Assembly (NCBI RefSeq): GCF_002216685.1
Contig: NZ_CP022353.1
Coordinates: 682,001 to 746,000 of the forward strand
Source of the DNA: Vibrio tarriae
GTDB taxonomy: Bacteria > Pseudomonadota > Gammaproteobacteria > Enterobacterales > Vibrionaceae
DNA: 64,000 nt
Reading direction: 5' to 3'
Position 1 is the first letter of the stretch; every line of letters begins with the position of its first letter. The notes under the pieces are model-generated. The model did no database searches and was not told the origin of the DNA. It saw only the letters and a program-made list of their open reading frames with translations. The translations under genes were made by a program, and so were the position numbers. This document shows positions 22,654 to 24,302 of the stretch, piece after piece.

Positions 22654-23666
22654 TTAAAAAGCTGGTATTGGCGTTGGTTGCTCTGATCGGTATTGTGGCA
22701 GGCAGCTACTTTTATGTTGTTAAGCAGATGGATCAGTATCTGGCTCAACCTTTGATGATCCAAGAGGCTCAGCTCGTCACTATCGCCTCAGGAACCAGTC
22801 TCAGTCGAGAGCTGGCCCAGTTAACCGAACAAGCTTGGATCCAAGATAGCTTTGTTGCCGAATGGGTACGTCGTTTTCATCCTGAACTCTCCAAAATTAA
22901 GGCAGGAACCTACAAGCTACAACCTGATATGTCTTTAGAGCAGGCTTTGGCGCTATTGGTTTCTGGTAAAGAGCATCAATTTTCCATCACCTTCGTGGAA
23001 GGCAGTCGTTTTCAAGAGTGGCGGGATATCCTCGCAAGCAACGAAAACATCACCCAGCAACTGACGGGCTTGACTGAAATTGATATTGCAAAGGCTTTAG
23101 GCATTGAGCATGAAAAGCTGGAAGGTTTGTTTCTTGCGGAAACGTATCATTTTACGAAAGGAACCAGCGATGTAGAGATCCTCAAACGAGCTAATCAGAA
23201 ATTGGAAAAATTTCTGCAAGTGACTTGGGAGCATCGCCAAGAGGGACTACCAATCCAGACGCCTTATGAAGCCCTAATCCTTGCCTCGATTATTGAAAAA
23301 GAAACCTCAATTGCCGAGGAACGCGAACGCATTGCAGCCGTTTTCATTAATCGTTTGAATAAGCGCATGCGCTTACAAACGGATCCAACGGTGATTTACG
23401 GGATGGGAGAGACCTACGATGGCAATATCCGTAAGAAAGATTTGCGCGCTCGTACACCATATAACACTTATGTGATCAATGGCTTACCTCCAACGCCTAT
23501 CGCAATGCCCGGAGAAGCGTCAATTTATGCTGCACTCAATCCTGAACAGAGTGATTATCTTTACTTTGTGGCAAGCGGTGAGGGTGGACACAATTTCTCT
23601 AAGACACTCGCAGATCATAACCGTGCTGTGCGTGCTTATCTCAAAAAACTTAGAACAAAACAATGA
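22650..23666 (+). CDS. mltG: Endolytic murein transglycosylase MltG
   Basis: MltG (338 aa, YceG-like) is an inner-membrane enzyme that cuts nascent glycan strands and so limits peptidoglycan chain length. There is one N-terminal membrane helix (about residues 4-22), then a LysM-like subdomain and the catalytic domain with the glutamate in ASIIEKETSIAEER. Later conserved pieces are TDPTVIYGM and GLPPTPIAMPG. The start is GTG at 22650, overlapping the pabC stop, and the 3' end overlaps tmk by four bases (ATGA), so translation of pabC-mltG-tmk is coupled. Confidence 0.94.
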   Translation: MIKKLVLALVALIGIVAGSYFYVVKQMDQYLAQPLMIQEAQLVTIASGTSLSRELAQLTEQAWIQDSFVAEWVRRFHPELSKIKAGTYKLQPDMSLEQALALLVSGKEHQFSITFVEGSRFQEWRDILASNENITQQLTGLTEIDIAKALGIEHEKLEGLFLAETYHFTKGTSDVEILKRANQKLEKFLQVTWEHRQEGLPIQTPYEALILASIIEKETSIAEERERIAAVFINRLNKRMRLQTDPTVIYGMGETYDGNIRKKDLRARTPYNTYVINGLPPTPIAMPGEASIYAALNPEQSDYLYFVASGEGGHNFSKTLADHNRAVRAYLKKLRTKQ

Positions 23667-24302
23667 ACGCAAAATTTATCGTAATTGAAGGTCTTGAAGG
23701 GGCGGGCAAAAGCACGGCGATTCAAGAGGTGGTGGAAACCTTACAGCAAAATGGGATTGATCATATCACTCGCACTCGTGAACCCGGCGGTACGCTGCTG
23801 GCTGAAAAGCTGCGTGCGTTAGTGAAAGAAGAACACCCTGGTGAAGAGCTTCAAGACATTACTGAGTTACTCTTGGTGTATGCCGCGCGAGTACAACTGG
23901 TGGAAAATGTCATTAAACCCGCGTTAGCAAGAGGTGAGTGGGTGGTCGGTGATCGCCATGATATGTCCTCTCAAGCTTATCAAGGTGGTGGCCGACAAAT
24001 TGCACCAAGCACGATGCAAAGCCTTAAACAGACCGCGCTTGGGGATTTCAAACCCGATTTAACCTTATATTTGGATATCGACCCTAAGCTTGGTTTGGAA
24101 CGTGCTCGCGGCCGTGGTGAGTTGGATCGCATTGAAAAAAATGGACATCAGCTTTTTTGAGCGTGCTCGTGAGCGTTACCTTGAATTGGCTAATAGTGAT
24201 GATTCTGTGGTTATGATTGATGCAGCACAGTCGATAGAACAGGTCACCGCCGATATTCGTCGTGCATTGCAAGATTGGTTGAGTCAAGTTAACCGTGTCT
24301 AA
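23663..24302 (+). pseudogene. tmk: Thymidylate kinase with a one-base frame break
   Basis: Tmk phosphorylates dTMP to dTDP and is essential for DNA synthesis. The frame from ATG 23663 gives 165 aa with the P-loop GLEGAGKSTA, the DR motif TREPGG and LYLDIDP. It then breaks: at 24135-24141 there are seven A residues after ATTG, and the frame ends at TGA 24160. Removing one A restores ARGRGELDRIEKMDISFFER and a complete 212-aa enzyme ending at 24302, the normal length. The downstream part is fully conserved, with no decay. A dead tmk is not expected in a viable cell, so this is either a sequence/assembly error in a homopolymer or a functional gene rescued by slippage. Upstream and downstream overlaps with mltG and holB are intact. 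Confidence 0.93.

What the first reader, a model, noticed from the sequence alone, without database searches (positions are those of the whole stretch)
23663..24302. Essential tmk gene carries an apparent +1 frameshift in an A7 tract
The thymidylate kinase frame ends at 24160, 47 residues early. Removing one A from the seven at 24135-24141 restores a full-length, fully conserved 212-aa enzyme, with RIEKMDISFF replacing RIEKNGHQLF. The C-terminal part shows no drift. tmk is essential, so a true null is implausible. The options are a sequence or assembly error in a homopolymer, RNA polymerase slippage giving a fraction of correct mRNA, or a second source of dTMP kinase.
Basis: partly seen in the sequence, partly recalled or inferred. 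Interest (0 to 1): 0.7.

Follow-up and report, generated by a model that had tools for sequence, protein, structure and literature searches.

The report
Sequencing error in essential tmk gene
A cholera-bacterium genome appears to carry a broken copy of an essential DNA-building enzyme gene, but the same assembly breaks other essential genes in a similar way, so this is almost certainly a sequencing error and not biology.

Summary
The tmk frame at 23663 ends at 24160 after 165 codons, an A7 tract lies at 24135-24141, and the missing C-terminal part continues in another frame to 24302, 53 of 53 residues identical to PDB 3lv8 Tmk. No second tmk passes the family cut-off and no DNMK-type kinase was found. 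In about 804 kb of this genome compared with relatives, nine conserved genes are frame-broken by a single base. They include tmk, ispE and rseP, each found only as split pieces and essential in E. coli (recalled). Seven of nine are one-base gains at A/T runs of six or more. The comparison genome G088 has about as many breaks (8) but all are losses (p=0.0023), as expected of assembly-specific errors. Named relatives are intact at 80 of 80 loci. mutS, mutL and mutH are intact. Slippage by E. coli RNA polymerase at one A7 gave 0.39% insertions, with deletions rarer (PMC6260861, passages). Verdict: artefact, low interest. Raw reads, not available here, are the final test.

The parts
23663..24160 (+). 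tmk, N-terminal part in the start-codon frame, 165 codons and a premature stop
24135..24141 (+). A7 tract at which the frame changes relative to relatives
24141..24302 (+). tmk, C-terminal part (53 aa) in another frame, identical to the end of PDB 3lv8
37456..37810 (-). Second frame-broken conserved gene of the window (118 aa in relatives), single-base gain at an A run; part of the same error pattern

Best explanation
The A7 is a base-calling or consensus error in this deposited assembly. The organism most likely carries an ordinary, intact 212-aa Tmk, as its relatives do. Shown: the frame break, the mostly one-sided A/T-run gain pattern in the sampled part of this assembly, and the splitting of other single-copy conserved genes. 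Inferred: that the living strain's DNA is intact there.
For: Nine conserved genes are broken by one base in about 804 kb (ORFs of G088 matched: 203 + 324 + 124): tmk, feoB, a 118-aa gene, a GGDEF/EAL protein, ispE, a SirB2-like gene, an AI-2E-family transporter, an acetolactate synthase large subunit and rseP. Seven of nine are single-base gains at A/T runs of six or more; two are losses elsewhere. ispE and rseP occur only as split pieces over or near the cut-off, as does tmk, so three genes essential in E. coli (recalled) would have to be null together. In G088 0 of 8 single-base breaks are gains (Fisher p=0.0023): each assembly has its own direction of error. tmk is intact in 80 of 80 named loci and, by my reading of the rows, in 141 of 147 matched genus genomes. 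The other five not intact all lie among the 11 matched genomes with contamination of 4 or more (p=5e-6). The C-terminal part shows no drift. Frameshifts in essential genes of deposited genomes are described, including a V. cholerae strain with 196 frameshifts and several in its RpoB region (PMC6403173, passages).
Against: The assembly is two contigs with completeness 100 and contamination 0.31, so it is not generally poor. Its number of long A/T runs is not raised compared with relatives. The lesions are uneven: 4 in 264 kb, 1 in 400 kb, 4 in 140 kb. G088 has about as many breaks, so the number alone does not mark this assembly; G061 has one clear single-base break among 167 matched ORFs. Two of the nine breaks, rseP among them, do not fit the A/T-gain type. 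No raw reads were available. No paper passage that I saw names tmk as essential in V. cholerae. A/T runs are also natural hot spots of real mutation.
Confidence: 0.93

Rival explanations
1. The A7 is real, and RNA polymerase slippage in the tract (or a ribosomal frame change there) yields a small fraction of full-length Tmk that is enough for growth.
For: The frame change lies in an A run; an A11 tract rescues Citrobacter rodentium tssM1 at about 20-25% (PMC4256274, passages). The C-terminal part shows no drift, as would be expected if it were still used.
Against: E. coli RNA polymerase made 0.39% insertions at one A7, and insertions exceeded deletions about threefold over four runs (PMC6260861, passages); a single-base insertion would not bring the two tmk frames together here. 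Deletions in E. coli homopolymers are rare (PMC5574713, passages). No intact named relative has a run above 6 there. It does not explain the rseP break.
Confidence: 0.03
2. The A7 is a real mutation, recent or confined to part of the sequenced culture, that was caught in the consensus.
For: A/T runs are natural slippage sites of replication; other broken genes found here (feoB, a GGDEF/EAL protein, acetolactate synthase) are not essential as far as I recall.
Against: ispE and rseP are broken too. mutS, mutL and mutH are uninterrupted, so no mutator is indicated; uvrD, dnaQ and dam were not tested.
Confidence: 0.03
3. The truncated protein is active, or the two parts are made separately and reassemble; the second part has an ATG at 24141.
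For: The second frame opens with an ATG 17 bases before the first frame's stop codon, so re-initiation is conceivable.
Against: Positions 160-196 of the dTMP kinase model are missing from the first part, and the whole length is kept in 80 of 80 named loci.
Confidence: 0.01

Closest known systems
Homopolymer-length errors in deposited bacterial genomes that break essential genes (PMC6403173: GroEL, RpoB, PolA cases)
   Same: Essential gene split into conserved frames while close relatives are intact, with several breaks in one assembly; the authors suspect sequence errors in homopolymer tracts for many of their cases.
   Different: That paper's main text has no occurrence of 'tmk' or 'thymidylate'. 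The present assembly has good completeness statistics.
Transcriptional-slippage rescue of an interrupted gene (Citrobacter rodentium tssM1, PMC4256274)
   Same: Poly-A tract shortly before a premature stop, with the rest of the gene conserved in another frame.
   Different: Seven A's, not eleven; relatives are uninterrupted here; the favoured direction of slippage, insertion of one base, does not fit.

Membership tests
Tmk (bacterial dTMP kinase, TIGR00041) | Full-length match to the dTMP kinase model over the curated cut-off in one frame | tested here: not met
   The N-terminal piece is over the cut-off (171.8 vs 83.25 bits) but covers positions 3-159 only; the C-terminal piece covers 160-196 in another frame. 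As deposited it is a split Tmk gene.
Sequencing or assembly homopolymer error | Close relatives carry an intact frame | tested here: met
   80 of 80 named loci kept; 141 of 147 matched genus genomes by my reading of the rows; six of the seven database proteins fetched are 207-212 aa, the seventh, P0074, is 158 aa.
Sequencing or assembly homopolymer error | Other conserved, including essential, genes of the same assembly broken in a similar manner | tested here: met
   Nine genes in about 804 kb, 7 of 9 gains at A/T runs; ispE and rseP split. Essentiality of ispE and rseP is recalled from E. coli.
Sequencing or assembly homopolymer error | Raw reads disagree with the consensus | not testable with these tools
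   No reads held.
Programmed transcriptional slippage | The slippery tract and the interrupted frame are conserved among relatives | tested here: not met
   All 80 named loci are uninterrupted and none has an A run above 6 in the corresponding stretch.
Programmed transcriptional slippage | Heterogeneous transcript length at the tract | not testable with these tools
   No RNA data.
Mutator lineage | Defective mismatch repair | tested here: not met
   mutS, mutL and mutH uninterrupted; uvrD, dnaQ and dam not tested.

The most novel reading that the evidence does not exclude
The A7 is real, and a free-living bacterium supplies an essential enzyme entirely through leaky decoding (sub-percent polymerase slippage or ribosomal frame change), or through two separately translated Tmk pieces that reassemble.
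Probability: 0.04. Interest if true: 0.65.

Novelty: not a real feature. Interest (0 to 1): 0.08.

Why it matters
It is a caution for users of this assembly: several conserved genes, essential ones among them, read as broken, mostly through single-base length changes at A/T runs, so pseudogene calls in this genome should be checked against reads before being given biological meaning. If the A7 were real, it would show how little of an essential kinase a cell needs.

Tried and rejected
A second dTMP kinase was sought with PF02223 and PF21448 in the own genome and not found over a cut-off (PF21448 itself rang in only 3 of 14 control genomes, over its cut-off in 1). A mismatch-repair defect was sought and not found in mutS, mutL or mutH. 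I guessed from memory that the strain might be RFB16, read its genome announcement (PMC7171212, whole text) and rejected it: three contigs of other sizes, against two contigs here, the larger of 3,017,468 bases. The strain therefore remains unnamed and its sequencing platform unknown to me. I asked whether the assembly has too many long A/T runs overall; it does not, so the error is sporadic. Paper searches on essentiality (listings seen, and passages of PMC8564382, where tmk, ispE and rseP do not occur in the main text) gave no passage naming tmk as essential in V. cholerae. Essentiality of tmk, ispE and rseP is recalled from E. coli work. P0074, a 158-aa Tmk from another 2.98 Mb contig, also ends near this spot, with further differences; it was not pursued.

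Rows dropped before counting the nine breaks of this genome: a 107-aa ORF (59-base difference), a 100-aa ORF of doubtful reality (one-base gain, T5), and a 171-aa G061 ORF that is a piece of a 306-aa gene intact here. Rows dropped from the G088 control: a 200-aa ORF that is a piece of the GGDEF/EAL gene broken here (one-base loss, T6); a 102-aa ORF with two one-base gains (T5 and T3), the only gains of one base seen in G088; and 196-, 103- and 167-aa ORFs with multi-base differences. The eight G088 genes kept were not identified, so I do not know whether any is essential. The census sees only ORFs of 100 aa or more and breaks that leave pieces long enough for tblastn, so nine is a lower bound.

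Full report
What is there. The window lies at G000:C2:682001-746000 of a two-contig, 4,123,863-base genome. The tmk frame starts at 23663 and stops at 24160 after 165 codons; seven A's lie at 24135-24141; a second frame carries the C-terminal part to 24302. Searched apart, the two pieces match adjoining parts of the dTMP kinase model TIGR00041, positions 3-159 and 160-196. They tile PDB 3lv8, differing at one residue in 1-159 and at none in the last 53. Among the nearest database proteins those with a source name are called V. cholerae or V. paracholerae. The gene order fabF, pabC, mltG, tmk, holB, tatD, ptsG is my reading of the ORF list, named from recall.

No substitute enzyme. PF02223 finds one locus over its cut-off, this one, with its C-terminal piece below the cut-off beside it. 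Four other hits are below the cut-off and cover at most the first 55 of 185 positions. PF21448 (DNMK) finds nothing.

Relatives are intact. One search confirmed 240 relatives and kept the best 80; records of this genome or very near ones may be left out there. All 80 carry one uninterrupted tmk, and the longest A run in the corresponding 60-odd bases is 6 in 25, 4 in 43 and 2 in 12 of them, against 7 in the window. Of the 114 loci given to, 108 passed as one uninterrupted match. The six that did not are L015, whose alignment runs past the stop of a 208-codon frame; four pieces fetched because one search showed them broken; and the distant paralogue L214. In the genus survey 147 of 148 genomes matched. 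By my reading of its rows, 141 have a single open frame of at least 208 codons and six do not: G000, G001, G010, G096, G117 and G140. The five others all belong to the 11 matched genomes with contamination of 4 or more; among the remaining 136 only G000 is broken (p=5e-6). A broken tmk is thus mostly a mark of troubled assemblies. G000 itself has contamination 0.31, which speaks against a generally bad assembly.

The main test: is tmk alone? I compared about 804 kb of the large contig with G088 and, for 264 kb of it, also with G061. With G088 ORFs as queries, 203, 324 and 124 were matched in the three blocks. After the exclusions told in Tried and rejected, nine genes intact in a relative are split by one base in G000: feoB, tmk, a 118-aa gene at window 37456-37810, a GGDEF/EAL protein, an acetolactate synthase large subunit, rseP, ispE, a SirB2-like gene and an AI-2E-family transporter (families). 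Seven of the nine are single-base gains at A or T runs of six to eight; two are losses elsewhere. Whole-genome searches find ispE and rseP only as two pieces each, plus one weak hit apiece below the cut-off. Simultaneous true loss of tmk, ispE and rseP, all essential in E. coli (recalled), is not credible.

Controls. In G088, eight genes intact in G000 are broken by one base. All eight are losses, seven of them beside G or C runs and one beside an A6. G088 thus has about as many breaks as G000; what differs is the direction (7 of 9 gains against 0 of 8, p=0.0023) and, more weakly, the run class (p=0.015). One dropped 102-aa G088 row has two one-base gains. G061 has one clear single-base break, a loss beside a G4, among 167 matched ORFs of G000 in the first block. 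Assemblies that each have their own one-sided error type are what sequencing platforms produce. A mutator is not indicated, as mutS, mutL and mutH are uninterrupted. Against a simple overall bias, the number of A/T runs of 7 or more is not raised in G000, and the lesions are unevenly spread (4 in 264 kb, 1 in 400 kb, 4 in 140 kb).

Slippage. An A11 tract rescues tssM1 of Citrobacter rodentium at about 20-25% (PMC4256274, passages). At one A7, E. coli RNA polymerase made 0.39% insertions, and insertions exceeded deletions about threefold over four runs (PMC6260861, passages). In E. coli transcripts insertions predominate in homopolymers and deletions there are rare (PMC5574713, passages and section 7). 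If these figures carry over to Vibrio, slippage could supply only a trace here, and it would not account for rseP.

Precedent. Frameshifts in essential genes of deposited genomes, many suspected to be sequence errors, are described in PMC6403173 (passages), including a V. cholerae strain with 196 frameshifts. The present case is of that kind. Conclusion: ordinary artefact, confidence 0.93, to be closed by raw reads.

Noticed in passing
window 37456-37810 (-): A second frame-broken conserved gene (118 aa in relatives; no Pfam or NCBIfam family at E 0.001) with the same kind of A-run length gain.
   Followed up: yes
G000:C2:548896-549721 (L219, L221) and G000:C2:476404-477749 (L222, L223): ispE and rseP, essential in E. 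coli (recalled), are each split into two frames in this assembly.
   Followed up: yes
G000 large contig outside the window (blocks): feoB, a GGDEF/EAL protein, an acetolactate synthase large subunit, a SirB2-like gene and an AI-2E-family transporter are also frame-broken; intact copies exist in relatives.
   Followed up: partly
L121-L124, L145-L154, L165-L174, L185-L194, L202-L209 (G088): The comparison genome shows its own, opposite signature: eight single-base losses, seven beside G or C runs.
   Followed up: partly
L214 (G072:C1:972500-973600): A second Tmk-like gene, 39% identical to the query, about 11 kb from the main tmk in another member of the genus.
   Followed up: no
P0074 (protein): A 158-aa Tmk from another 2.98 Mb contig ends near the same residue and carries further substitutions; possibly another assembly artefact.
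   Followed up: no
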